From: Rhodothermales bacterium | GTDB taxonomy: Bacteria; Bacteroidota; Rhodothermia; Rhodothermales; JANQRZ01 | Length of the DNA: 64,000 nucleotides | Reading direction: 5' to 3' | NCBI GenBank assembly: GCA_028284265.1 | Contig: JANQRZ010000003.1 | Span: 310,001-374,000 of the forward strand | Shown here: one piece after another, positions 4,147 through 20,570 of the stretch | Position numbering within the stretch: the first letter of the stretch is position 1 | How the letters are laid out: each line of letters starts with the position of its first letter | Program-made: the position numbers and the translations under genes | Notes under the pieces: generated by a model | The model's input: the letters and a program-made list of their open reading frames with translations, nothing else | What the model was told of the DNA's origin: nothing | Databases searched by the model: none

Positions 4147-6216
<2,070 letters not shown>

Positions 6217-6388
6217 GAAGCGCGGGAGATGGAAGAGTGGCAACCCCGAAACCTATCCCTCGGGGGTGTCAACAGTGTGACACCTATTTACGCGAACAGC
6301 GATGGGATGCGTTCCCTGACGGGCGTGCATAAACAACCCCGCCCCGGCGACGGCCAGAGCGGGGTCGGTAAAGCTAGGGCGACGCCGA

Positions 6389-7477
6389 TCAGTCGACGAC
6401 CACGTCGGTAGCGTTACCGTCCAAGATGCTTCCGAGCCAGTCGGCGTAGGTGCCGGGGTAGCGATCGGGGAAGCGGAGGAAGGTGTGATCGGTGCCGGGG
6501 GCGAAGTACGTTCCCCAACTGGCGGGTGCCATCGTGTTAAGATCGCCCAGCCCGTTCTCGTACTGCTCACCTGTGATCTCAACAGGTTGCCCGGTCAGCG
6601 GGTCGATGCCGAAGAAGAAGCGGATCGTCTCGTCCTGAAGGTAGGACGAAAGCCCAAACGTCGCGTCGGGGTAGCGCCCGTCGTAGTAGGCATAGACGTT
6701 CTGGAGGCCGTCGGGCTGGAAGAGTGCGGCCGCATCGGCAGGGAACGCCGCGGGGAAGTTGAAGAGCTGGACGAAGGCTCCGCCGAGAGCCGGACTGAAG
6801 ACGGCGTCGTCGAAGAAGACCGGGCCGGAGTCGTTGACGAGCGTGAGGTCCGCGTTGTCGAAGGTGTCAGCGACCTGGGCGAAGTTGACGAGGGTCCCGA
6901 ATCCGCCCGCACTGGAACCCGTGAGGAGGACCTTGTCGGGATCGTCGAACACCGGACGGAGGACGGCAAGGTAGGCCTCAATGTTCTGATGCCCGACGAA
7001 CTGCTGCACGCCGTCTACGCCGGGGACGGTCGCATCGGGCGCGCTGCCGCCGTGGACATCGCCCGTGCAGTAGGGAACATAGACTGCGTTCCAGTCGCCG
7101 ACGGGGTTGGTCGCATCGGTGCTGAAGACACCGAAGCTGCCGCCGAGGCCGACGAAGCCGACGAACTCCTCACCGCCGAAGGAGCCGGGGTTGGTCGCGC
7201 ACGTTTCCGGGCTGAAGCACGCGCCGCCGCCTTCGAGGTAAATGACGAGGTTGTCGGAGTTCTCTTGGAACCGGATGCCGAAGCCAGTGGGGGAGCCGTC
7301 GCGGCAGGCCGCCCCTTCGGTCTCGATGAAGAACCACCGGCCGGGGTTGGCCTCGGCCTCGGCGAGCGGGCCCTCGTCTCCGTTGTCGTCAGGGTCGTCG
7401 GAGTCGCAGGCCGGAAGGGCGAAGAGGAGGGCGCCGAGGCAGAGTACAGTGGCGAAGCGTTGAAGGAGAAGCTGCAT
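6389..7477 (-). CDS. Pectinacetylesterase/Notum-family lipoprotein, paralogue 1
   Basis: A protein of 362 aa. The lipoprotein signal has its lipobox Cys at residue 24 (FALPAC), so it is probably anchored in an envelope membrane. The core is an alpha/beta-hydrolase of the pectinacetylesterase family: LVIYLEGGGACF, a paired-cysteine region, VPYCTGDVHGG, the nucleophile elbow LTGSSAGGFGT and a C-terminal histidine in GTDHTFLRFP. Such enzymes remove acyl groups from polysaccharides (plant PAE) or from a lipidated protein (Notum); the substrate here is unknown. It is the last of three tandem paralogues. ATG 7477 fits the signal peptide; the longer frame upstream has no signal character. Confidence 0.85.
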   Translation of the reverse strand: MQLLLQRFATVLCLGALLFALPACDSDDPDDNGDEGPLAEAEANPGRWFFIETEGAACRDGSPTGFGIRFQENSDNLVIYLEGGGACFSPETCATNPGSFGGEEFVGFVGLGGSFGVFSTDATNPVGDWNAVYVPYCTGDVHGGSAPDATVPGVDGVQQFVGHQNIEAYLAVLRPVFDDPDKVLLTGSSAGGFGTLVNFAQVADTFDNADLTLVNDSGPVFFDDAVFSPALGGAFVQLFNFPAAFPADAAALFQPDGLQNVYAYYDGRYPDATFGLSSYLQDETIRFFFGIDPLTGQPVEITGEQYENGLGDLNTMAPASWGTYFAPGTDHTFLRFPDRYPGTYADWLGSILDGNATDVVVD

Positions 7478-7584
7478 GGAGATCGCGTAGGTGGTGTGGG
7501 ATGACACCGCAAAGCTACTCCCTTCGGCGAGGCCCTCCGAAGAAAACGGCGTGGACATCGCCGCTACGCGAGACGTCTTCCTCG

Positions 7585-8844
7585 CTACGGTCCTCCCGAC
7601 GTGGTATCCTGCTGGGCGGGCATATCGGTACTATTGCCCCCGAAGCTGTTGTATATCCAGTCCGTCAGGGGCAACGTGTCGACCTGTACCTCATAAAAAT
7701 CAGACTGCTGGATGAAGGTATGCCCGTTGCCCTCGGGGTAGAAGGTGATGAAGTTCGTAAGCAGCGAGTCCCGATAATCGAAGAGGGCGTCTTCGTAGAC
7801 TTGGGCGTCGATTCGGAGGTCGGTGGACCCGTCGCAGGTAAGGTCGGTCGTGGTGCAGAACGGGTTGTTCTTGCACAGGAAGCTTCGGTCTACACAGTCT
7901 TCGGTGTAGGAGGTAAAGGCAAACGTTCGGGCGGGGTTAGTCTGCGCGTAGTACGGCAGGACGTACTCCAGCCCGTTGAGGCATTCCACGCAGTCTTCGG
8001 GTATGACACTCGGCGTGATCCGGCGGCTCTCCATGTTCCAGAGGCTGCGCCAGAGGGCTTCTTGGTCGGGGGAGAAGGCGCTGTCGGCGCTCAGGAATGG
8101 CCCGGAGTCGTTCAAGAGGTTGACCGGGGCCGGAGCGAGACGGTCAGCGACCAAGCCATAGGTGTTGATGGTCCCGAAGCCTCCGGCACTGGTTCCGGTG
8201 AGCACGATGTTGTTGGCTGCTCTGGCTCCTCGGTTGGCTAGGATATCAAGGACGATCTCCATGTTGCGGTAGCCCACAAACTGCTGCGGCGTGGGCACAC
8301 CGGACACGACGGCATTGGTCGTATCGCCGCTATGGAGGTCCCCGGTGCAATACGGGACGAAGATGGCAGTCCAGTTCAGGAATGGGTTGTCCGGATTGGT
8401 AGAGGAGAAGAGACCACTCTCGCCGTTCTTGTCTCCAGTCCCGTTGACGAGGTCGTTGAAGAAGGTTTCCTCCGAGAAGTTGGAGGGGTTGCTGAAGCAG
8501 TTCTCGTCGTTGAAGCAGGCCCCACCGCCCATGAGGAAGATCAGAATGTTCCGATTGGACCCGCGTCGAAACCCGAAGCCGGTCGCCGAACTGTCGCGGC
8601 ACATCATCCCGAGGTCCTGAAAGTCGCCGGGCATCGGGTTGGGACCTCGCGGCCCCACCCATTTCCATTCATCGACCCCAGTACGAGCAAGGGGATCTAG
8701 GTTAATGCCGAGTGGATCGATCTCGGCTTGCTGCGTCGCATCAACTTGATCGCAGGCTGAGAGGACGAGGGTGAAGAGAACCAAGCCCGCGAGACAGAGC
8801 AAAAGAGAATGAGTCGCTCGCAGGGAGGAAACAAAGAGGTGCAT
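7585..8844 (-). CDS. Pectinacetylesterase/Notum-family lipoprotein, paralogue 2
   Basis: A protein of 419 aa, the longest of the three. The signal peptide ends at the lipobox LVLSAC (Cys31). It shares with its neighbours MMCRDSSATGFGFRRG, ILIFLMGGGACF, VPYCTGDLHSGD, the nucleophile elbow LTGTSAGGFGTINTYG and the late histidine GNGHTFIQQ. It has an extra cysteine-rich insert (SFLCKNNPFCTTTDLTCDGS) before the C-terminal part, which paralogue 1 lacks and which may form disulfides. A perfect 8+8 bp palindrome lies 21 bp upstream of the start. The preceding gene (paralogue 3) ends 134 bp upstream, so the three may form one transcript or be separately controlled. Confidence 0.85.
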   Translation of the reverse strand: MHLFVSSLRATHSLLLCLAGLVLFTLVLSACDQVDATQQAEIDPLGINLDPLARTGVDEWKWVGPRGPNPMPGDFQDLGMMCRDSSATGFGFRRGSNRNILIFLMGGGACFNDENCFSNPSNFSEETFFNDLVNGTGDKNGESGLFSSTNPDNPFLNWTAIFVPYCTGDLHSGDTTNAVVSGVPTPQQFVGYRNMEIVLDILANRGARAANNIVLTGTSAGGFGTINTYGLVADRLAPAPVNLLNDSGPFLSADSAFSPDQEALWRSLWNMESRRITPSVIPEDCVECLNGLEYVLPYYAQTNPARTFAFTSYTEDCVDRSFLCKNNPFCTTTDLTCDGSTDLRIDAQVYEDALFDYRDSLLTNFITFYPEGNGHTFIQQSDFYEVQVDTLPLTDWIYNSFGGNSTDMPAQQDTTSGGP

Positions 8845-8864
8845 GGTGGAGCCTAGTGGAGAAC

Positions 8865-8881
8865 GCCTTGCGTCGCAAGGC
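8865..8881. promoter_or_regulatory. Perfect inverted repeat upstream of paralogue 2
   Basis: GCCTTGCG and CGCAAGGC are separated by one base, 21-37 bp upstream of the start codon of the middle pectinacetylesterase-like gene. The position fits an operator or a 5'-UTR hairpin. No regulator was identified. Confidence 0.35.
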
Positions 8882-8978
8882 TGGGTTGAAGAGGCGGACC
8901 TAGTCGAAAACTATTCCGAGGCTGGTACAGCGGCCTTTGCCGAGCCAGACCGGGAACAAAAGCGGGACGGATGGGGGG

Positions 8979-10112
8979 TTACTCGGCGTGTGCGACCACG
9001 AGAGATTGGGCAGCGGGGAGATCGCTCGTTTGGCCGTTCAGGAGGGCCGTCACCCAATTTGTGAGCGGCACGCCCTCGACGGTGGTCGAGTAAAAGGTGT
9101 TGCTCAACAGGAACGTATGGTCCTGGCCGTTGACGTAGTACGTTCCGAGGTTCGGTGGGTGGATGGAGCGGAGGTCGAAGAGACCGTTCTCGTAGGCCGA
9201 GGTGCTCACGCCGCCAAAGAATGCACGGATGACGGCGTCGCCTTTGTAGGAGAGGAGGCCGAAATTCCTGTTCGGATTGGTTTGGGCGTAGTACGGGAGC
9301 ACGAACTCCAGCCCATCGCCATCCGCTTGGTTGCAGAATGAATCGGGGCAGCCGGACGGGAGGGCTGTTTCAAGGTTCCAGAGATCGCGCCACCGCTGCT
9401 GTAGGCTGGGGTCGAGCACGTCGTCGTCACGGTGGGCCGGGCCGGAATCATCAAGGAGGTCCACGGGAGCCGGAGCGAGGCGATCGGCGACGAGGCCGTA
9501 AGTACCGATGGTGCCAAACCCGCCCGCACTGATGCCCGAGAGAACGATTTGGTCGGCTTGCCGAGCCGGACCGTCGATCTCGTCCAGAATTGCCTCGATG
9601 TTTCTATACCCGACGAAGTCCTGCCGCCCGACAAAGGGGACGTTCGTGTTGGGGGCGTTCCCAGCGTGGATGTCGCCCGTGCAGTAGGGGACGTAGATGA
9701 CGTTCCAGCCGAGGAACGGGTTGGCCTGCTGGGTAGTGGAGAAGACACCGTTCTCGCCGATGGAGGCGAACTCCTCATTGAAGTCAGCTTGGTTGTAGCT
9801 GCTAGGATTGAGGAGGCAGGTGAAGAAGTCGAAGCACGCCCCGCCGCCTTGGAGGAAGATCAGGAGATCGCGGGAGCCAACCGCCCGGCGCAGGCCAAAG
9901 CCGGTGTTCGATCCGTCGCGGCACTGCATCCCGGCATTGGGCACCCACTGCCAGTTCTCGGCATCGGCGGCCGAGAGCGCAGGGAGCAGGGGGCTGTCAT
10001 CGAACAGGCCCTCGGACACCGTTTCCTCGGGCGCAAAGGCGTCGGTACAGGCAGCGAGGCTAAGGCTGAGGCCGAGGCAGAGCAGCGTCAGCGGGCGGCG
10101 GGACAAGAGCAT
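8979..10112 (-). CDS. Pectinacetylesterase/Notum-family lipoprotein, paralogue 3
   Basis: A protein of 377 aa whose signal peptide ends at the lipobox LSLAAC (Cys22). Family landmarks: GMQCRDGSNTGFGLRRA, LLIFLQGGGACFDFFTC, VPYCTGDIHAGN, the nucleophile elbow LSGISAGGFGTIGTYG, DDSGPAH and the C-terminal QDHTFLLS histidine. It is closest to paralogue 2 (shared TYGLVADRLAPAPV and LEFVLPYYAQTNP), pointing to a recent duplication of these two, with paralogue 1 more distant. The start at ATG 10112 sits directly before the hydrophobic leader; the longer open frame upstream overlaps the divergent restriction gene and is not supported. It is first in the tandem. Confidence 0.85.
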   Translation of the reverse strand: MLLSRRPLTLLCLGLSLSLAACTDAFAPEETVSEGLFDDSPLLPALSAADAENWQWVPNAGMQCRDGSNTGFGLRRAVGSRDLLIFLQGGGACFDFFTCLLNPSSYNQADFNEEFASIGENGVFSTTQQANPFLGWNVIYVPYCTGDIHAGNAPNTNVPFVGRQDFVGYRNIEAILDEIDGPARQADQIVLSGISAGGFGTIGTYGLVADRLAPAPVDLLDDSGPAHRDDDVLDPSLQQRWRDLWNLETALPSGCPDSFCNQADGDGLEFVLPYYAQTNPNRNFGLLSYKGDAVIRAFFGGVSTSAYENGLFDLRSIHPPNLGTYYVNGQDHTFLLSNTFYSTTVEGVPLTNWVTALLNGQTSDLPAAQSLVVAHAE

Positions 10113-10204
10113 GATATTAAACGGGGATGGACAAGGCGAACGGCGAAGATAGAGATAGAGGCTGCCGGTGTCTAGTGCCAACAGGCTTATCCGACTAGCG
10201 CCAA

Positions 10205-10209
10205 AGGAG
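10205..10209 (+). promoter_or_regulatory. Shine-Dalgarno-like AGGAG deciding the EVE-McrB start
   Basis: AGGAG ends eight bases before GTG 10218 and eleven before ATG 10221. The spacing favours GTG, giving a protein starting MMRYWIW. Strong SD sequences are rare in this window. Confidence 0.45.
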
Positions 10210-10217
10210 TATTTTTC

Positions 10218-11912
10218 GTGATGCGCTACTGGATCTGGTCCGTTCGCCCCGAGCACTACCCGGCGTTTGTCCGCACCGGCACGTTCGCCGTGCGACGGGT
10301 GGGGCGCACCGCCGTGCAAGAAGTGCGGCAGGGCGATCGTATCGTGGCCTACTTGTCAGGACGGCGCACCATAGCAGGCGCTTTCGAGGCGACGAGTACG
10401 GCCTTTGAGGATGACACAGCCCTCATCCCCGGAGGGGCGTATGCCCACCGGGTGCGCGTTCGCTCGCTTGTGACCCTGAACGAGGAAGTCCGCGTACCCT
10501 ACGAGGCCTTTGCGGGCAAGCTGACGGTACTCGATGAGTACGCCCACCTCGACGATCCCGACCGGCAGTTCCGCGCCATCGTGCAGCGCGTCGTGCATCC
10601 GCTCCCGCCTGTCGATGGGAAGGTGCTGGAGTTTCTGATCCGCGCCCGCCAAGGGACCGACTTCGAGGCAGTGGTGGCGGCCTACGAGCGCTTTCGGCGG
10701 GCGCAGGACGGTGAGGAGGAGGCCCTGCCGATGGCCGTCCACGAGACACCCGGCGACTATCGCAGGCCATCGCTCGACGGGTGGAACCGAGCCGATGCAC
10801 TGGGGCGACTGATTGAGTCCATCGAAGCGCGAGGGTTCGTCTACCAGCCGTGGCAGGTCGCGGCTTACGTGACGGCGCTCCGAACGAAGCCGTTTGTGAT
10901 CCTCGCGGGCGTCACCGGGGTTGGCAAGAGTCGGTTGCCTGTGCTCGTCGCCGAGGCGACCGGTGGAGCCGCTGGCCTGATTCCCGTTCGCCCCGACTGG
11001 ACGGATAGCGCCGAGGTGCTCGGCTACACGGACTTGCAGGGCACCTTTCGTTCGGGTGCCTTACTTGCCAAGGCCCGCGAGGCGGTGGAACGCCCGAGTC
11101 AATATGCTGTCGCCGTGCTCGATGAGATGAACCTCGCTCGTCCCGAGCATTACCTCGCCGAGGTGCTCAGTCGGATCGAAGGGCGGCAGTCGTCGGCAGG
11201 TGGTGGGTTCGAGAGTCCGCCGCTCATCGCGTCATCTAAGGTGCGGCTCCCGCCAAACCTAGGGATTGTCGGGACGGTGAACATGGACGAGAGCGCGTTC
11301 GGGTTCAGTCGGAAGGTGCTAGACCGAGCCTTCACGCTGGAACTGTCGGACGTGACGCTCGGAACGTGGCATGCGGCATCCGACATCGAGGCAGTGACGC
11401 GCCCTTGGCCGGTGGCGGCGTGGTGGCCCCGTGCCGTCACGCTCGGCGGGCTAGGTGCGCTATCGAAGCAGGAGGCGCGCCTCGTGGAGGAGGTCATTGC
11501 TGTGCTGAACGAGGCCGATGCACTGCTCGCGCCGGCTGGCTTGGGCCTCGGCTATCGGCTGCGCGACGAGGCCGTGCTGTTCGTCCTCCACGCCGCCGAA
11601 ACCCCGGACGCCTTTCGCACCCGCGACGGCACGTCCGTGGACCCGCTCGACCTCGCCCTGTTCATGAAGCTTCTGCCCCGCATCGCGGGCGGGAACCAGA
11701 GCGTGCGCCGCGCCCTCTTCGCGCTCCTCGGCTGGGCAATGGACGGGGCAGCGCTCTCATCGGAAGATGAGGTCCGCGAGGTGCTGGACGAGTGGGATCG
11801 ACAAGCCCGACCGTCGTACCTCACGGGGGCGCGGTACCCTCGCACTGCGGCCCGCCTCGTGCTGATGACAGAGCGTCTGCTTGCAGATGGGTATGCTTCG
11901 TTCTGGGAGTAG
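10218..11912 (+). CDS. EVE domain fused to McrB-type AAA+ ATPase
   Basis: A protein of 564 aa. Residues about 3-140 resemble an EVE domain (YWIWSVRPEHYPAF at the start, then QGDRIVAYLSG and IAGAFEATS). EVE/PUA-like domains bind modified bases in DNA or RNA. After a linker, residues about 205-560 form a McrB-like AAA+ module: Walker A GVTGVGKSR near 230, DSAEVLGYTD, Walker B AVLDEMNLARPEHYLAEVLS near 297, and the sensor/Arg-finger region TVNMDESAFGFSRKVLDRA near 352. It abuts the next gene with no spacer, as mcrB and mcrC do. The inferred role is recognition of modified foreign DNA and motor-driven restriction. Confidence 0.85.
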   Translation: MMRYWIWSVRPEHYPAFVRTGTFAVRRVGRTAVQEVRQGDRIVAYLSGRRTIAGAFEATSTAFEDDTALIPGGAYAHRVRVRSLVTLNEEVRVPYEAFAGKLTVLDEYAHLDDPDRQFRAIVQRVVHPLPPVDGKVLEFLIRARQGTDFEAVVAAYERFRRAQDGEEEALPMAVHETPGDYRRPSLDGWNRADALGRLIESIEARGFVYQPWQVAAYVTALRTKPFVILAGVTGVGKSRLPVLVAEATGGAAGLIPVRPDWTDSAEVLGYTDLQGTFRSGALLAKAREAVERPSQYAVAVLDEMNLARPEHYLAEVLSRIEGRQSSAGGGFESPPLIASSKVRLPPNLGIVGTVNMDESAFGFSRKVLDRAFTLELSDVTLGTWHAASDIEAVTRPWPVAAWWPRAVTLGGLGALSKQEARLVEEVIAVLNEADALLAPAGLGLGYRLRDEAVLFVLHAAETPDAFRTRDGTSVDPLDLALFMKLLPRIAGGNQSVRRALFALLGWAMDGAALSSEDEVREVLDEWDRQARPSYLTGARYPRTAARLVLMTERLLADGYASFWE

Positions 11913-13598
11913 ATGATGGGCACGCTGTTCTCCATCGCGACAGATCGCGTACGACTGACGTTGAGTGGGCCACTCGCACCGCCAGACCCGACGGCACCGG
12001 AAGCACATCTCGTCGTGCATTCGCTTCGGGCAGGTAGCGAGTTGCTGGTCGAATGCGGGGGCGAGAGGGGCTCTTCTGGCGCAGTGCTCCGGCTGGTGGA
12101 GCAGACGCCGTACCGCCTGTTCATGACGAGCCGATCCAGCGAGTCGGTTGCCGTGCAGCACCGCGATCCGGTCATCACCGGCGGGTTGGTGAGCGATGAT
12201 AAGGGGCGAGTCGTCGCCGGGACGGTGGACTTCGGTGGGCAGGTCGGGCGGAGCCGGTTCGTGGTATTGGTCGGTGGGGAAGAGGAGGTTGCCTTCGAGG
12301 TAGACGTGTTTCCGGCGAAGGTGTCGTTCGATGAGATGGAGCGAATGCGGACGGAGATCGACGAGGCGCTCGCAGGGCTGGCGTTCGAGTATCTCCGGGC
12401 GACGCAGACGTTTTCCACCGAGGCCGTCACGCCGCCGCGCCGGGCGACGTGGCTGACGCTCCTCCGCCGCACCCTGCCCGATCTCGAACGTGCCCTCAGT
12501 CAGATAGCGCATCGTCCGCACCGAGACTTGCACCGAGAGGCCGTGCCCGTGCGCGTAGAGCAAGTGCAACGGCCCGACCCATCTGTGCGCCGCGCCATTC
12601 GCCAGGGACGAGGCGGAGGAGCGCTGCATCGACTCCGAACGGGCGTGCCGGTACGGTCGGTCGTCCCCACCCGCTGCGCTCACGCGACGCTTGACACGCC
12701 CGAGCATCGCTGGCTCCGCGCCCGCCTCGCGTCGGCCCACCGCGCCCTTGCCACGCTTCACGCCGATGAAGTTGTGCGCCCGCGTTCTGCTCGTCGCCGC
12801 CGCGTCTTGGACGACTTGGCAGATGCGGACCAGCGCCTCGCCCGGTTGCTCCGCCTTGATCCACTTGCGGCAGCCTCGCCGGGTCCGCCGCCTGCGCCGA
12901 CGCAGCGCCTGCTCGCGGCCCCCGGCTACGCCGAAGCCCACGCCGCCTGCCGAGTGCTCGATCTCAGCCTCGCGCTCGCTGCCGGGCCGGTTCCGCACGC
13001 GACGAAGGACCTTCACCTGCTCTACGAACTGTGGACCTATCTCACGCTTGCCCGACTCGTCGCCGATGCGCTCGGGCAACCAGTTCCACCTTCGGCCTTC
13101 TTTCGGGCCGAGCATCGGGGCATCCGCTTTCTGCTGCGGCGTGGACAGCAGCACGGCGTAACGTTCGAGCACGACGGGCGGCGGGTCCGCCTCGCCTATA
13201 ACCCGCGCTTCTCCGGCCGGGCGGGCCTGATGGCGCAGCGGCCCGACATCCTGATGACCGTCGAGACACCGGGGCGCACGCGGCGGTTCGTGCTCGACGC
13301 GAAGTACCGTCGCGACGAGCGGGCAGGCTATGTCCGCCGATTCGGGGTACCGGGTCCGCCCGAGGACGCACTGGGCGACCTGCACCGATACCGCGACGCG
13401 ATTGTCGAGACGCAGGCGGGTCGGTCCGAGCGGACGATTGAGGAAGCCGTCGCGCTGTTCCCTGGTGTCGGAGGCGAGGTGTTTGCCGGGAGCCGCCTGT
13501 GGACAGCCATCGAGCAGATTGGCGTCGGCGCGATCCCCCTCGTGCCGAGCGAGACGGCCTACCTTGAACGCTGGCTCCGCCGTGTCCTCGAAGCCTAG
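11913..13598 (+). CDS. DUF2357/PD-(D/E)XK nuclease, McrC-like partner
   Basis: A protein of 561 aa. The ATG directly follows the stop of the EVE-McrB gene, so translation is probably coupled. The N-terminal half is a beta-rich then helical region of the DUF2357 kind. The C-terminal third has PD-(D/E)XK nuclease landmarks: LHLLYELWTYLTLARLV, then RPDILMTVETPG and the catalytic-looking VLDAKYRRD near residues 443-470, followed by DLHRYRDAI. McrC-type partners stimulate the McrB NTPase and carry the nuclease. Reading it as the nuclease subunit of a modification-dependent (type IV-like) system is inference from the domains and adjacency. No methyltransferase adjoins the pair. Confidence 0.8.
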   Translation: MMGTLFSIATDRVRLTLSGPLAPPDPTAPEAHLVVHSLRAGSELLVECGGERGSSGAVLRLVEQTPYRLFMTSRSSESVAVQHRDPVITGGLVSDDKGRVVAGTVDFGGQVGRSRFVVLVGGEEEVAFEVDVFPAKVSFDEMERMRTEIDEALAGLAFEYLRATQTFSTEAVTPPRRATWLTLLRRTLPDLERALSQIAHRPHRDLHREAVPVRVEQVQRPDPSVRRAIRQGRGGGALHRLRTGVPVRSVVPTRCAHATLDTPEHRWLRARLASAHRALATLHADEVVRPRSARRRRVLDDLADADQRLARLLRLDPLAAASPGPPPAPTQRLLAAPGYAEAHAACRVLDLSLALAAGPVPHATKDLHLLYELWTYLTLARLVADALGQPVPPSAFFRAEHRGIRFLLRRGQQHGVTFEHDGRRVRLAYNPRFSGRAGLMAQRPDILMTVETPGRTRRFVLDAKYRRDERAGYVRRFGVPGPPEDALGDLHRYRDAIVETQAGRSERTIEEAVALFPGVGGEVFAGSRLWTAIEQIGVGAIPLVPSETAYLERWLRRVLEA

Positions 13599-15982: not shown

Positions 15983-16000
15983 TTACGTACATGTTACGTA
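15983..16000 (+). repeat. TTACGTACATGTTACGTA, left arm repeat
   Basis: It matches 20553-20570 (TTACGTACAGGTTACGTA) at 17 of 18 positions in the same orientation. Each copy contains two TTACGTA units. The copies lie 91 and 107 bp inside the HAD direct repeats, the way arm-type sites flank an integrase core site. It could instead serve as a promoter-region operator for the HAD gene. Confidence 0.5.
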
Positions 16001-16433: not shown

Positions 16434-16829
16434 AGTTTCTGCTCGATTGTTTCCGCCCAACATACCAGCCAGCACAGGCAAAGGGGAACCCCGGCTCGCG
16501 CTCGAACTGCTTGGCGGAAACGCCTGCGGGTATGGCTCATAGTGAACACGACGTGGAGCCACGAAATGAGCTAGGTGCGGGATGGCTCCCTATCGGGCGT
16601 GCGTATCCGGGCAGTCATTTGGCTCCTCCACGAGCCATCGTCGGACTACATCATGGGCTGCGTGGAAATAGGCCCAAAGGCTAATTACTTAACGCGCTTA
16701 TCCCCTTGTTACAGGTGATACGCTAGAAGCTACGATGAAGAGGTCGCCTGCACTATGACTTCATCAAATGTCGGGCGTATTCTGCCAACTCAGCAGACAA
16801 TAGGGTTTGACTGAGTACATCTTCGTCCT
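16434..16829. other. 396-bp non-coding stretch holding the left transposon end
   Basis: No convincing gene is seen. The left terminal inverted repeat of the transposon starts at 16693, and 113 bp separate its inner end from the ParB-like start, enough for a promoter. The outer part (16440-16690) contains short open stretches on both strands without start, length or homology to support them; it may be remnant DNA of an earlier element. Confidence 0.5.
16693..16716 (+). repeat. Left terminal inverted repeat
   Basis: It begins CGCGCTTATCCCC and ends TTGTTACAGGT. All 24 bases are the exact complement of 20447-20470. Confidence 0.9.
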
Positions 16830-18212
16830 ATGACTGGAACCTTCGTTATCGAAACCGCAGCGCTCTCCGAGCTTGTTCCCGACAAGAAGAACCCGCGCCT
16901 GACTGGCTACCCAGAGACGGAGCGCGACACTTATATCCAGATGGCCAAGGCGATTGAGGGCAAACTCGTCACACTAGCTTCGGACATCGTTACTCGTGGT
17001 GGGCTTAACCCGGCAACGGTCTTTATTACGATCCGGGGCGACAGAAACAGCCTCATCGTTCTTGATGGCAACCGACGGCTGACCGCCTTGCGTGCCCTTG
17101 AACAGCCCTCCCTCGTTGAGTCCGCACTTGACCCCTCTTCCTTCAAGAAGCTGAAAGGACTTCACGACGATTATTCCTCCGGTGCTAGGTCTGGGCTTCC
17201 AATTGAAGAGGTTCTCTGTGCTGTATTTGAATCACGCCCGGAAGCGAACAAATGGATCGAACTCATCCACGAGGGGGAGCGGGATGGGGCCGGGCCGGTT
17301 CCTTGGAGTGCACAGCAGAAGGCTCGACACCGTGACAATAACTCGGAGACCAAGGCTTACCATATGCAGGTACTCGACTTCGTGATGCGTGACGGCGAGG
17401 TCGGTGACGTCGCCCGCCAGCGGTACGATGAGGGGAAGTATCCCGTCAGCACACTACAGCGAACGATAAGCACCCCAGAGGTGCGGCATATGCTTGGCAT
17501 TGATGCGGATTCTGGAGAGGTGAAGACTCACTACCCGAAGGATGAAGTGCTCAAAGGCTTGACCCGCCTCGTAGACGAGATTGGTTCGGGTAAGACCAAG
17601 GTGGGGAAGGTGATGGACAAAGGGAAGCGCATCAAGTATATCGAGTCTTTCGGCCCCCACAACCTCCCAGACCCGACGACTAAGGGTGAAATCGCCTACG
17701 AGCTTGATGAGGTGCCTGAACCCGATCCTGCTCCATCAGATCCGACGCCGAAGAGGTCGAAGGACAACAAACACAGCAGTAAGCGAAAGCACCTCATCCC
17801 ATCAGCCTTCACAGTAGAGATTGACGTACCTCGCATCAATGACATCTACCTTGAACTCAAACGTCGCCTCGAACTCAGTTCCCATCCAAACGCTATCGGC
17901 GTACTCCTCCGGGTCTTTCTCGAACTCAGTGTAGACGAGTACATCGAGCGCAACAACGTCTCGGTCGCCGTGAACAAAGACCTCGCGCCCAAAGTCAAGG
18001 GAGTAGCTGACTACATGGTCAAGAAGCGCGTGATGAAGGCGAACAGTCTTAAATCAGTTCGTCAGGCAGTAACGAAGGCTCAGGATGGCAGTGGCACCAT
18101 CATCACGACGCTAAATACCTTCGTTCACAATCGGGAAGGACAGCCTACAGCAAGGGATCTCACGGCAATGTGGGACCGGCTCTCTACCTTCATCGAGAAG
18201 CTTTGGAGCTAA
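16830..18212 (+). CDS. ParB/Srx-fold N-terminal domain protein, transposon cargo
   Basis: A protein of 460 aa. The opening LSELVPDKKNPRLTGYPETE and the motif VLDGNRRLTALRAL (near residue 70) are typical of ParB/sulfiredoxin-like domains, a fold shared by ParB CTPases and by several defence and modification proteins. The ParB helix-turn-helix is not seen. A Lys/Pro-rich linker (about 295-325) leads to a helical C-terminal domain of about 130 aa containing GVLLRVFLELSVDEYIE and NTFVHNREGQPTARDL near the end; the His-Asn pattern recalls HEPN-like domains, but I cannot assign it. It lies 103 bp before the methyltransferase gene, likely co-transcribed. Its role is unknown, perhaps regulating or targeting the methylase. 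Confidence 0.75.
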   Translation: MTGTFVIETAALSELVPDKKNPRLTGYPETERDTYIQMAKAIEGKLVTLASDIVTRGGLNPATVFITIRGDRNSLIVLDGNRRLTALRALEQPSLVESALDPSSFKKLKGLHDDYSSGARSGLPIEEVLCAVFESRPEANKWIELIHEGERDGAGPVPWSAQQKARHRDNNSETKAYHMQVLDFVMRDGEVGDVARQRYDEGKYPVSTLQRTISTPEVRHMLGIDADSGEVKTHYPKDEVLKGLTRLVDEIGSGKTKVGKVMDKGKRIKYIESFGPHNLPDPTTKGEIAYELDEVPEPDPAPSDPTPKRSKDNKHSSKRKHLIPSAFTVEIDVPRINDIYLELKRRLELSSHPNAIGVLLRVFLELSVDEYIERNNVSVAVNKDLAPKVKGVADYMVKKRVMKANSLKSVRQAVTKAQDGSGTIITTLNTFVHNREGQPTARDLTAMWDRLSTFIEKLWS

Positions 18213-18315
18213 GCAGTGGCCAAGACAATTTAGGGTGGCCAAAACAAAGTGTGTGTCGTAAGTTTGCTCTGGCACATATTGTGCTCGCCACACCTTCTGA
18301 CTCACTTGGCCTTGA

Positions 18316-19224
18316 ATGCCCGGCTTCCAATCTCCTCTCCGCTATCCCGGCGGCAAGCGCAAGCTCGCCAATTTTATCAAGCTACTCCTCCGCTCGAATG
18401 ACCTCTTGGATGGGGAGTATGCCGAGGTGTACGCGGGGGGGGCTGCTGTTGCACTTGAACTGCTCTTCGAGCGCTACGTCTCGCACATCCATATCAATGA
18501 CTACGATCCGGGCATCTACGCCTTCTGGTACTCGGCTGTCCATGAGACGGACGCGCTGTGCCAGCGGATCTGGGATGTAGAGGTCAAGATGGATGAGTGG
18601 TATCGCCAGCGTGAGATCCACGAGCAGTTGCATTCCGGTGAGGAAATTGCCCGCTTGGATGCAGCACTTGCTACATTCTTTCTCAACCGTGCGAATAGGT
18701 CGGGAATTATCTCAGGGGGTGTGATCGGCGGCAAGCAGCAGACAGGGGAGTGGGGGATCGGGGCACGATTTAACAAGCCTGAACTCGTGCGACGGATTGA
18801 GAAGATCGGGCGCGAGCGCAACCGGATCAGCGTAACTAGGAATGACGGAGTAGTCTTCTTGAGAGAGGTTGTCTCTACGTTACCGGCACGTTCCTTTACT
18901 TATTTGGACCCCCCCTATTACGTCAAGGGTCAGCAAATGCTCTACGCTAACTACTACAAGCCGGAAGACCACCGGAAAGTAGCTGAATTGGTGAGCAATC
19001 TAGGAATACCTTGGATGGTCTCCTACGATGACGTAAAAGAGATCCGTTCCCTTTATATCGCTCACCGTTCACAGGATTACGACATTCATTACAGCGCGCA
19101 AAAGCGGTACCGAGGCCGCGAAGTAGCGTTCTTCTCTGACGATCTTAACGTCCCAGATGTAGACGACCCTGCCCGCATCAACGGACGCAGCTTTCGGCAT
19201 TTGGAGTTTGAGTTGACGGCTTAG
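18316..19224 (+). CDS. D12-class DNA adenine N6-methyltransferase (Dam-like)
   Basis: A protein of 302 aa. It opens with the family's SAM-binding signature SPLRYPGGKRKL at residues 6-17, has EVYAGGAAVALELLF (motif I-like), and the catalytic motif IV DPPYY near residue 198 preceded by SFTYLD. It ends with SYDDVKEI and a YSAQKRYRGREVAFF region usual for D12 enzymes. It transfers a methyl group from SAM to adenine in a short target that cannot be read from sequence. No restriction endonuclease is adjacent, so it is an orphan methylase riding on the transposon. It could mark element DNA against host restriction or influence transposition. Confidence 0.9.
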   Translation: MPGFQSPLRYPGGKRKLANFIKLLLRSNDLLDGEYAEVYAGGAAVALELLFERYVSHIHINDYDPGIYAFWYSAVHETDALCQRIWDVEVKMDEWYRQREIHEQLHSGEEIARLDAALATFFLNRANRSGIISGGVIGGKQQTGEWGIGARFNKPELVRRIEKIGRERNRISVTRNDGVVFLREVVSTLPARSFTYLDPPYYVKGQQMLYANYYKPEDHRKVAELVSNLGIPWMVSYDDVKEIRSLYIAHRSQDYDIHYSAQKRYRGREVAFFSDDLNVPDVDDPARINGRSFRHLEFELTA

Positions 19225-19259
19225 GAGCCTGCGCCTCGTTTCGTCGTATACTGGCTACG

Positions 19260-19475
19260 ATGAGTTGCTCTGACCAACAACGCGAGAAGCCTCAAGCGGA
19301 CGCACCCGAGCGCCCGCAAGACCGGCCTTTGCCTAACACAGACTTCCCGCCAGCACTTCAGCGTACACTCGCACAGAAGCTCCAAGAAGAGCAGGCGGGT
19401 GATGGTTCTACGCTTTCAGAACCGGAGTTTAAGGAAGCGTTGCAGAAAGTTGCCCGGCAACGGCAATCTGACTGA
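19260..19475 (+). CDS. Small hydrophilic protein, transposon cargo
   Basis: A protein of 71 aa, 35 bp after the methyltransferase and in the same direction. It is strongly hydrophilic (rich in Gln, Glu, Arg, Pro), with an N-terminal disordered-looking part and a short helix (EFKEALQKVARQRQ) at the end. Its last 47 bp overlap the 3' end of the convergent transposase gene. It has no recognised domain. Position suggests the third gene of the cargo operon, but coding status rests only on the open frame and spacing. Confidence 0.45.
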   Translation: MSCSDQQREKPQADAPERPQDRPLPNTDFPPALQRTLAQKLQEEQAGDGSTLSEPEFKEALQKVARQRQSD

Positions 19476-20385
19476 GCATCGCCGTAAACATCGGCGTCTC
19501 CTTCTTGGCGTTGGAGTGCCGGAAAGCGAACTCGTCAACGTAGCGCTGTAGGTATCGCGGGTTGACGCCCTTGTGGACGGCGGTAACGCCCCCTTTGACG
19601 TGGCTCCCAAAGCCCTCGATGGAGTTGGTATGCACCGGGTTGGTGCCCTCCTCAGAGACGATCTCGCCTGTCTCATAATCAACGGCTTCCTTCGCATACT
19701 GCCAGCGGCGGTGCTGTACCCAATCATGCCCGTAGCCCATGTCTCCTAGCGGGCGATACACGCTGTATTCGTCGCTGTAGATCGTCGCACCTTCCTCTAC
19801 GTTGTCGGTGATGAGCGGGAGCACCGTGTCACGCTTGGTATCGTCTACAACGAAGGCGCGAACTCGCTTCACGCTCCCGTCCTCGCCGCGTTCGACTAGG
19901 CCAACCACCGGCTGTTTCCGGGTGCCCCGTCCCCGACGACTCTGGCCTTTGTAGCGCGGCTTCCCGCCGACGTAAGCCTCGTCCACCTCTACGGTCCCTT
20001 CCATCGCGGCGAAGTCGCCCTCGGCAAGCGCAGCGCGCACTAGCTGGCACATCTTCCACGCCGTCTTGTAGGTCACGCCGGTCTGCCGTTCGATCTCTTT
20101 GGCAGAGACGCCGCACCGGGTCTGTGCCATCTGGAAGACGACGTAGAACCAGACCGTAAGCGGGGTGCGGCTCCGGTAGAAGATGGTGCCCTTCGTCGGG
20201 TAGAACTGATTGCCGCATTCCTTGCACTCGTAGCACTTCCGCTTCTCGATCAGGTAGTGCTGTGTGGCGTCCTCACACTTCGGACACTCGATCCCATTGG
20301 GGAAGCGAAGCTCGGCTAGATGGGCGATGCACTTGGCCTCTGTGCTGAACTCTCGGATGAACTGCGCGACGGTATATTTCTGCAT
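19429..20385 (-). CDS. IS1595-family (ISXO2-like) transposase
   Basis: A protein of 318 aa, intact. The N-terminus has a zinc-ribbon with four CxxC cysteines (CPKCEDATQHYL, CYECKECGNQFYP), followed by TIFYRSRTPLTVWF and a helix-turn-helix-like region (GVSAKEIERQTGVTYKTAWK). The DDE core shows VEVDEAYVGGKPR (first Asp), IYSDEYSVYRPL (second Asp) and NSIEGFGSHVKGG (third acidic residue), with the FAFRHSNAK tail common to the family. It catalyses cut-and-paste movement of the element. The start codon lies 61 bp inside the right terminal repeat. The gene looks functional. Confidence 0.93.
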   Translation of the reverse strand: MQKYTVAQFIREFSTEAKCIAHLAELRFPNGIECPKCEDATQHYLIEKRKCYECKECGNQFYPTKGTIFYRSRTPLTVWFYVVFQMAQTRCGVSAKEIERQTGVTYKTAWKMCQLVRAALAEGDFAAMEGTVEVDEAYVGGKPRYKGQSRRGRGTRKQPVVGLVERGEDGSVKRVRAFVVDDTKRDTVLPLITDNVEEGATIYSDEYSVYRPLGDMGYGHDWVQHRRWQYAKEAVDYETGEIVSEEGTNPVHTNSIEGFGSHVKGGVTAVHKGVNPRYLQRYVDEFAFRHSNAKKETPMFTAMLSQIAVAGQLSATLP

Positions 20386-20446
20386 CAGAACGTGCCTTGA
20401 AGTTGGTGCCCAAAGGTACCGACTCCTAGTGCCATCCGCGTGTCAT

Positions 20447-20470
20447 ACCTGTAACAAGGGGATAAGCGCG
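20447..20470 (-). repeat. Right terminal inverted repeat
   Basis: Exact complement of 16693-16716 over 24 bases; it marks the right end of the IS1595-type element, 61 bp upstream of the transposase start. Confidence 0.9.
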
Positions 20471-20552
20471 AATGGTAATCAGGCGACGGCAATTTGCCTG
20501 AGTATCCACGACATTCTGGGGACTCGGCGCTCAACTAGATTGCTGCCATCCG

Positions 20553-20570
20553 TTACGTACAGGTTACGTA
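20553..20570 (+). repeat. TTACGTACAGGTTACGTA, right arm repeat
   Basis: Direct copy of 15983-16000 with one mismatch, outside the transposon but inside the HAD direct repeats. This suggests it belongs to the larger inserted segment rather than to the transposon. Confidence 0.5.

What the first reader, a model, noticed from the sequence alone, without database searches (positions are those of the whole stretch)
10218..13598. EVE-McrB and DUF2357 nuclease pair as a two-gene restriction system
Seen: N-terminal EVE-like domain joined to a McrB-type AAA+ with TVNMDES and FSRKVLDRA motifs, and an abutting partner with RPDI and VLDAKYR nuclease motifs. Known: EVE domains bind modified bases and McrBC cuts modified DNA. 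Inferred: a compact modification-dependent defence unit on an ordinary chromosomal stretch. The fusion family is already partly described, so novelty is moderate, but the closeness to a mobile methylase is notable.
Basis: partly seen in the sequence, partly recalled or inferred. Interest (0 to 1): 0.55.

Follow-up and report, generated by a model that had tools for sequence, protein, structure and literature searches.

The report
Clade-inherited EVE-McrB / McrC nuclease pair
Two neighbouring bacterial genes encode a motor with a modified-base reader and its partner DNA-cutting enzyme, a known kind of anti-virus system, but here the pair has been handed down as a fixed chromosomal feature within one bacterial group, and both genes are kept even where they no longer sit side by side.

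Summary
ORF 10218-11912 is an EVE domain joined to a McrB-type AAA+ motor. ORF 11913-13598 is DUF2357 plus an intact PD-(D/E)XK nuclease whose best structural matches are McrC. The motor has the shortened "NxD" signature, not the classical NxxD. The likeliest function is a McrBC-type, modification-dependent (Type IV) restriction nuclease. The modified base is unknown, and the EVE pocket could not be modelled.

(1) The "mobile methylase" is the two-gene PD-lambda-5 defence system. It lies with an IS1595 transposase between perfect 24-bp inverted repeats, is absent at this place in the sister genome, and is unrelated to the pair. (2) The pair is not itself mobile here. Among 114 genomes of the order, 23 hold both genes, one holds the nuclease and an end fragment of the motor, and 90 hold neither. 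Carriers cluster by family. The motor gene lies near uvrB in 20 of 23. In six genomes the two genes are unlinked (by 423 kb in one chromosome) yet both are kept. That is unusual for McrBC, normally one operon, and makes a domesticated role testable, though Type IV defence stays the better bet.

The parts
10218..11912 (+). Gene A: EVE-McrB-like AAA+ protein, 564 aa from GTG 10218 (563 aa from the conserved ATG 10221)
10221..10610 (+). EVE (PUA-like) domain, A residues 1-130; F22 and Y74 align with W22 of PH1033 and with Y82 of 2eve (Y82 named as a pocket residue in PMC7897488)
   Evidence: the model is disordered here
10776..11906 (+). AAA+ motor and C-terminal helical part, A residues 186-562
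10908..10931 (+). Walker A, GVTGVGKS (A 230-237; G230, T232, G233, G235, K236 invariant in 23)
11115..11126 (+). Walker B, VLDE (A 299-302; D301, E302 invariant)
11280..11288 (+). NxD signature, N354-M-D356 (shortened form of McrB NxxD)
11322..11330 (+). DRA (A 368-370); R369 invariant, arginine-finger role inferred
11913..13598 (+). Gene B: McrC-like protein, 561 aa
11913..12317 (+). N-terminal beta-sandwich (B 1-135), Ig/filamin-like in the model
12219..12944 (+). DUF2357 match (B 103-344); the helical part is modelled from about residue 139
13020..13469 (+). PD-(D/E)XK nuclease domain (B 370-519 by Pfam)
13245..13304 (+). Catalytic core D445 ... D462-A-K464; E372 (13026-13028) lies upstream; all invariant in the orthologue alignment and in 5 distant relatives
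4147..6216 (-). uvrB: the divergent neighbour of gene A across the carrier clade (context, not part of the system)

Best explanation
A and B form a McrBC-type, NTP-driven restriction nuclease of the NxD branch, with an EVE domain as its reader. Shown by sequence or fold: the EVE domain, an intact AAA+ motor, a McrC-like partner with an intact PD-(D/E)XK site, and co-inheritance of the two genes. Inferred from McrBC: A assembles into a ring; EVE flips out and binds a modified base in foreign DNA; B docks through DUF2357, stimulates hydrolysis and cuts when translocation stalls. The modified base is unknown. In this order of bacteria the pair was acquired early, next to uvrB, and has since been inherited mainly vertically as a standing, non-mobile Type IV restriction system, with losses and, in some lineages, separation of the two genes.
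For: Domains and active sites. B's best fold matches are McrC: 6ut7_G Z 9.9, 6hz4_M Z 9.2, 6ut6_G Z 8.6. A's motor profile matches E. coli McrB chains (4.6e-4 to 1.1e-3) and its model matches 6hz4_E (2.1e-5). Reader swap: a Planctomycetota motor 52% identical carries MrcB_N (PF12102) instead of EVE, followed by the same McrC-like partner. Vertical inheritance: 23 of 114 genomes hold both genes, G007 holds B plus a 25-residue end of A at a contig end, 90 hold neither. uvrB lies divergently near A in 20 of 23. The A and B trees share 9 and 9 of 16 splits with UvrB and 13 with each other, against about 0.2 by chance. Presence needs 5 changes on a 51-genome UvrB tree, against 13 for C5 methyltransferases present equally often, 21 of 51. 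Purifying selection: dN/dS 0.015-0.52 in every domain and pair with a nonzero estimate.
Against: No phage or enzyme data. Vertical fixation and unlinking of A from B are unusual for McrBC (described as one operon in PMC11090510). The EVE pocket could not be modelled. Carriers do not avoid C5 methyltransferases as a general 5mC target would predict: 7 of 22 carriers against 15 of 38 non-carriers have one. UvrB and A disagree on some deep splits, and the f10 genome sits away from the other carriers on the UvrB tree.
Confidence: 0.68

Rival explanations
1. Domesticated system: the pair no longer mainly fights phages but surveys the cell's own DNA, for example removing or reporting damaged or mis-modified bases, as a fixed clade gene set beside uvrB.
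For: Family-wise presence and joint loss; uvrB neighbour in 20 of 23; unlinked but both kept in six genomes; in some pairs EVE is more conserved than the motor (G004-G028: 97% against 87%), whereas PMC7641849 describes fast-evolving EVE domains as typical of defence contexts; no methylase among 20 flanking proteins scanned in selected relatives. Co-option of an EVE-McrB is known (PcdA).
Against: The nuclease and motor sites are fully intact, unlike PcdA. B evolves fast (34-76% identity to the window protein). It is absent from seven families of the order and from one genus of f12 (both genomes, 88% complete), so it is dispensable. In other pairs EVE is less conserved than the motor (G039-G046: 61% against 74%).
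Confidence: 0.17
2. A split restriction-modification system of the LlaJI/PcaI kind: A-B cut unmodified DNA at a site, and a methyltransferase elsewhere in the genome protects it.
For: Related motors on phage contigs and a plasmid sit beside DNA methyltransferases. LlaJI and PcaI are functional McrBC-like systems with methylases.
Against: None of the 20 flanking proteins scanned around A or B in selected relatives is a methylase (not every neighbour was scanned). C5 methyltransferases are absent from 15 of 22 carriers. Other methylase types were not surveyed.
Confidence: 0.08
3. An RNA-directed nuclease like that predicted for CoCoNuTs, which share the NxD motor; EVE would read modified RNA.
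For: NxD signature and a beta-sandwich N-terminus on B, as described for CoCoNuT McrC proteins.
Against: No cold-shock, HEPN or helicase partner recognised among the proteins scanned; B's closest folds include McrC and the DNA restriction enzyme BsoBI.
Confidence: 0.07

Closest known systems
EVE-McrB fusion systems (Bell et al. 2020, PMC7641849; passages read)
   Same: EVE domain fused to a McrB motor; described there as the commonest EVE architecture in defence systems, in nearly 300 genera.
   Different: Here a vertically inherited clade member; in several genomes motor and nuclease are unlinked.
NxD branch of McrBC, relatives of CoCoNuTs (PMC11090510; passages read)
   Same: NxD signature; McrC with DUF2357, PD-(D/E)XK and a beta-sandwich N-terminus.
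   Different: Only two genes; EVE instead of the coiled-coil and cold-shock domains; no helicase or HEPN partner seen among the proteins scanned.
E. coli and T. gammatolerans McrBC
   Same: Motor plus DUF2357/PD-(D/E)XK partner; T. gammatolerans McrB has a PUA-like (YTH) reader (PMC7641849, PMC7897488 passages).
   Different: NxD not NxxD; EVE not DUF3578; extra N-terminal beta-sandwich on B compared with E. coli McrC.
LlaJI and PcaI (PMC1459862, PMC8989522; passages read)
   Same: McrBC-like two-subunit restriction enzyme.
   Different: Those carry a methyltransferase and cut unmethylated sites; none was seen here, and the reader domain differs.
PcdA of Staphylococcus (PMC10602043; passages read)
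   Same: EVE domain(s) plus McrB motor kept by a clade, co-opted from restriction.
   Different: PcdA has two EVE domains, a degenerate motor and no nuclease partner; here all sites are intact.

Membership tests
McrBC-type (Type IV) restriction | McrB-type AAA+ motor with Walker A/B and N-D signature | tested here: met
   Invariant in 23 orthologues; profile match to McrB chains; NxD variant, not NxxD
McrBC-type (Type IV) restriction | Partner with DUF2357 and an intact PD-(D/E)XK site | tested here: met
McrBC-type (Type IV) restriction | The two genes side by side in one operon (typical rather than strictly defining) | tested here: inconclusive
   Met in the window. Across 23 genomes: direct neighbours in 9, split by an opposite-strand gene in 7, contig break in 1, unlinked in 6.
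McrBC-type (Type IV) restriction | NTP-dependent cleavage of modified DNA | not testable with these tools
   Needs enzyme assays.
McrBC-type (Type IV) restriction | No cognate methyltransferase | tested here: inconclusive
   No methylase among 20 flanking proteins scanned in selected relatives; genome-wide only C5 methyltransferases were surveyed.
EVE domain | Sequence-profile match to EVE | tested here: met
   21 of 23 orthologues match Pfam EVE at E <= 0.1, best 1.8e-6; PH1033 8.6e-8
EVE domain | EVE/PUA fold with an open base pocket | tested here: inconclusive
   Model pLDDT 22-39 over residues 1-140; no usable structure
CoCoNuT | NxD motor | tested here: met
CoCoNuT | N-terminal coiled coils on the motor and tandem nuclease/helicase partners | tested here: inconclusive
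   The N-terminus is EVE. Coiled coils were not predicted as such; not every neighbour was scanned.
LlaJI/PcaI restriction-modification | Cognate methyltransferase in the cluster | tested here: not met
   None among 20 flanking proteins scanned in selected relatives. Of 10 window proteins scanned between 8982 and 23205 the only methylase belongs to PD-lambda-5.
PADLOC candidate system PDC-M26 | Matches to M26A and M26B | tested here: inconclusive
   A matches PDC-M26A at 6.9e-36 (best stretch 203-325); B matches M26B only at 0.079.
PD-lambda-5 (16830-19224, neighbour) | Both genes A and B | tested here: met
   2.3e-115 and 1.7e-114

The most novel reading that the evidence does not exclude
A complete, catalytically intact EVE-McrBC nuclease has become a resident genome-surveillance system of a bacterial clade: fixed beside uvrB, kept as two genes even after they were separated, with a conserved reader whose ligand is a constant modified or damaged base, possibly the cell's own.
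Probability: 0.17. Interest if true: 0.75.

Novelty: new member of a known kind. Interest (0 to 1): 0.42.

Why it matters
McrBC systems are usually treated as operon-encoded, often mobile defence. A pair that has stayed put across several families, and keeps both genes intact after they drift apart, lets one ask what a restriction system does for a host when it is not being swapped in and out, and whether EVE ligands can stay constant over long times. It also shows that a census requiring McrB and McrC to be neighbours (a filter used in PMC11090510) can miss unlinked pairs.

Tried and rejected
Foldseek alone gave no match at E <= 0.001 for B; the McrC matches come from the second look by VIA-align, where rows below Z 8 are at common-arrangement level.

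C5 methyltransferase as the ligand-maker: no difference between carriers (7 of 22) and non-carriers (15 of 38). Residue 74 (aromatic in 16, leucine in 7 orthologues) goes with C5 methyltransferases: 6 of 7 with leucine against 2 of 16 aromatic, Fisher p 0.0017. Two genomes examined afterwards, G070 and G072, fit. I do not count it as evidence: five of 273 residue states scanned over residues 1-130 have lower p-values, the states follow family lines, and the absence in G070 rests on an 88% complete genome. It is a lead only.

Methylase closeness as meaningful: rejected, see full report. A search of viral contigs with the B alignment found no relatives. PDC-M26 is named in no paper of the library. 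Literature on vertically inherited, domesticated or unlinked McrBC: searches gave no paper that I recognised from its listing as describing this pair; subscription papers are not held.
Full report
What is there. Gene A (10218-11912, +; start at GTG 10218 or, by conservation, ATG 10221) and gene B (11913-13598, +) are real and directly adjacent. A is EVE plus a McrB-like AAA+ motor; B is DUF2357 plus PD-(D/E)XK. On the window protein alone the EVE match is below Pfam's cut-off (0.0019), but 21 of 23 orthologues match EVE, best 1.8e-6, and their N-terminal profile finds the solved EVE protein PH1033 at 8.6e-8. In 23 orthologues the Walker A and B residues, the NxD signature and the conserved arginine are invariant in A. 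E372, D445, D462 and K464 are invariant in B (23 rows, of which L036 is a fragment that starts after residue 248) and also in five distant relatives. A predicted model of B (mean pLDDT 73.9) has McrC as its three best structural matches, 6ut7_G Z 9.9, 6hz4_M Z 9.2, 6ut6_G Z 8.6, with an Ig/filamin-like sandwich in front and restriction-enzyme folds at the C-terminus; Foldseek alone gave no significant match for it. The model of A is usable only for the motor, which resembles McrB, dynein and NorQ motors.

Branch. A carries N-M-D where E. coli McrB has NxxD. The census of McrBC (PMC11090510, passages read) names this the NxD branch, says that no NxD motor had been characterised, and describes McrC proteins with an N-terminal beta-sandwich in the related CoCoNuTs. 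LlaJI and PcaI (passages read) are McrBC-like enzymes that work with a methyltransferase; relatives of our motor on phage contigs and a Mycobacteroides plasmid likewise sit next to DNA methyltransferases (the C5 type on the phage contigs is my reading of the translations). A Planctomycetota relative (L029) shares the motor at 52% identity but has MrcB_N in place of EVE. The N-terminus is thus an exchangeable reader on a shared motor.

Distribution. In the order, 114 genomes were searched (for A; together for B). A is full length in 23; B is present in these 23 and in G007, where A shows only 25 of its last residues at a contig end; 90 genomes have neither, apart from weak motor matches (25-31% identity) in G015, G016, G056 and G069. 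By family: f1 3 of 3, f3 7 of 7, f6 1 of 1 (partial A), f7 2 of 2, f8 1 of 1, f10 1 of 1, f11 2 of 2, f12 7 of 9 (both g32 genomes lack both genes), and none in f2, f4, f5, f9, f13, f14, f15. Outside the order, 11 further genomes of the class (of 244 searched, order included) and 7 further genomes of the phylum sample (394, class included) have matches at E <= 1e-10, all at 37% identity or less and without the EVE part. So there is a sharp step between this clade's orthologues and the patchy rest. On plasmids the best motor match is 42.8% identical and starts after EVE; on phages there are 2 weak records.

Vertical inheritance. uvrB lies divergently from A within about 10 kb in 20 of 23 A loci; not seen for G008, G011 and G023, the last on a 7-kb contig. 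In the window three pectinacetylesterase-like genes lie between. In 20 genomes without the pair (19 of other families, plus G059 of f12) no A or B remnant was found around uvrB. Trees of A, B and UvrB for 19 genomes: A shares 9 of 16 splits with UvrB, B 9 of 16, A and B 13 of 16; random labels give about 0.2 and at most 3. On a UvrB tree of 51 genomes, presence of the pair (21 of 51) needs 5 changes; C5 methyltransferases (also 21 of 51) need 13; one carrier clade including G059 is not rejected (p-AU 0.087). Against this: A and UvrB differ in placing f1 with f12 (100 in UvrB, absent in A, recovered by B), and f10 stands apart on the UvrB tree. UvrB is a neighbour of A, so it is not a fully independent marker.

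Linkage. Direct neighbours in 9 of 23 (window, all seven f3, G013). In 7 (G001, G002, G032, G039, G046, G053, G072) an acetyltransferase-like gene on the opposite strand lies between (only the copy in L055 was scanned, Acetyltransf_3 at 1.6e-4, below the cut-off), so A and B cannot share one simple operon there. G070 is cut by contig ends. In 6 they are unlinked: G012, 423 kb apart on one contig; G009, 11.5 kb apart; G008, G011, G021 and G023 on different contigs, with no B within the stretch held downstream of A (1.8 kb in G023, 3.6 kb in G021, more in the others). Yet no genome of the order has one complete gene without at least part of the other. Twenty proteins flanking A or B in selected relatives include glycosyltransferases, FecR, a D-Ala ligase, a peptidase and a transporter; eight had no Pfam match at 1e-5, and none matched a methylase or nuclease. 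One glycosyltransferase also had a weaker match to a 'conflict systems' family.

Selection. dN/dS is 0.015-0.52 wherever a nonzero value was estimated, in all domains of twelve genome pairs; some dS values are near saturation. EVE is not the fast part: in G004-G028 it is 97% identical against 87% for the motor and 77% for DUF2357; in other pairs (G039-G046: 61% against 74%) it is less conserved than the motor. Bell et al. (PMC7641849, abstract and passages) describe fast-evolving EVE domains as typical of defence contexts.

The methylase. 16830-18212 and 18316-19224 are PD-lambda-5 A and B (2.3e-115 and 1.7e-114), a phage-defence system found by functional selection (PMC9519451, passages read). 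With an IS1595 transposase (19429-20385) they lie between perfect 24-bp inverted repeats at 16693-16716 and 20447-20470. The sister genome G001 has the genes on both sides (lipoprotein-like 85%, rhomboid-like 86%, HAD 73%, then GNAT 82% and SPT-like 88% identical) but nothing of this between them. PD-lambda-5 A occurs in 3 of 60 relatives, one each in three families. I found no target-site duplication by eye. The insertion is therefore later than, and independent of, the A-B pair.

Judgement. Best reading: a Type IV-like, modification-dependent McrBC nuclease, resident in this clade. The mechanism steps (ring assembly, base flipping, translocation, cleavage) are inferred from McrBC and EVE literature; none is shown here. 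The unusual part is evolutionary: family-wise inheritance, joint loss, retention after unlinking. A domesticated role is open but not needed. The C5 survey and the position-74 lead are told under Tried and rejected because they do not hold up against family structure.

Noticed in passing
16681-20482: PD-lambda-5 A/B plus an IS1595 transposase between perfect 24-bp inverted repeats (16693-16716, 20447-20470): looks like a transporter IS with a defence system as cargo; no target-site duplication seen.
   Followed up: partly
15983-16000 and 20553-20570: Near-identical, palindrome-like 18-mers TTACGTACA[T/G]GTTACGTA flank the whole inserted stretch, outside the IS inverted repeats.
   Followed up: no
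L041 about 4843-6446; also L043, L045, and G040: uvrB is interrupted by a roughly 1.6-kb insert near residues 48-58 in some genomes of the order but not in the window; intein-like, not analysed.
   Followed up: no
6389-10229: Three pectinacetylesterase-like paralogues in tandem between uvrB and gene A; at least one copy at the same place in several f12 genomes, G002 and G021. Only the third was scanned against Pfam (PAE, 2e-26).
   Followed up: partly
L055 10714-11361 (and L041, L042, L048, L053, L057, L058, L060): Acetyltransferase-like gene on the opposite strand between A and B (or beside A) in relatives, absent from the window.
   Followed up: partly
A residue 74 (window 10440-10442): Aromatic in 16 and leucine in 7 orthologues; the leucine genomes mostly have C5 methyltransferases (6 of 7 against 2 of 16). 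Confounded by family.
   Followed up: partly
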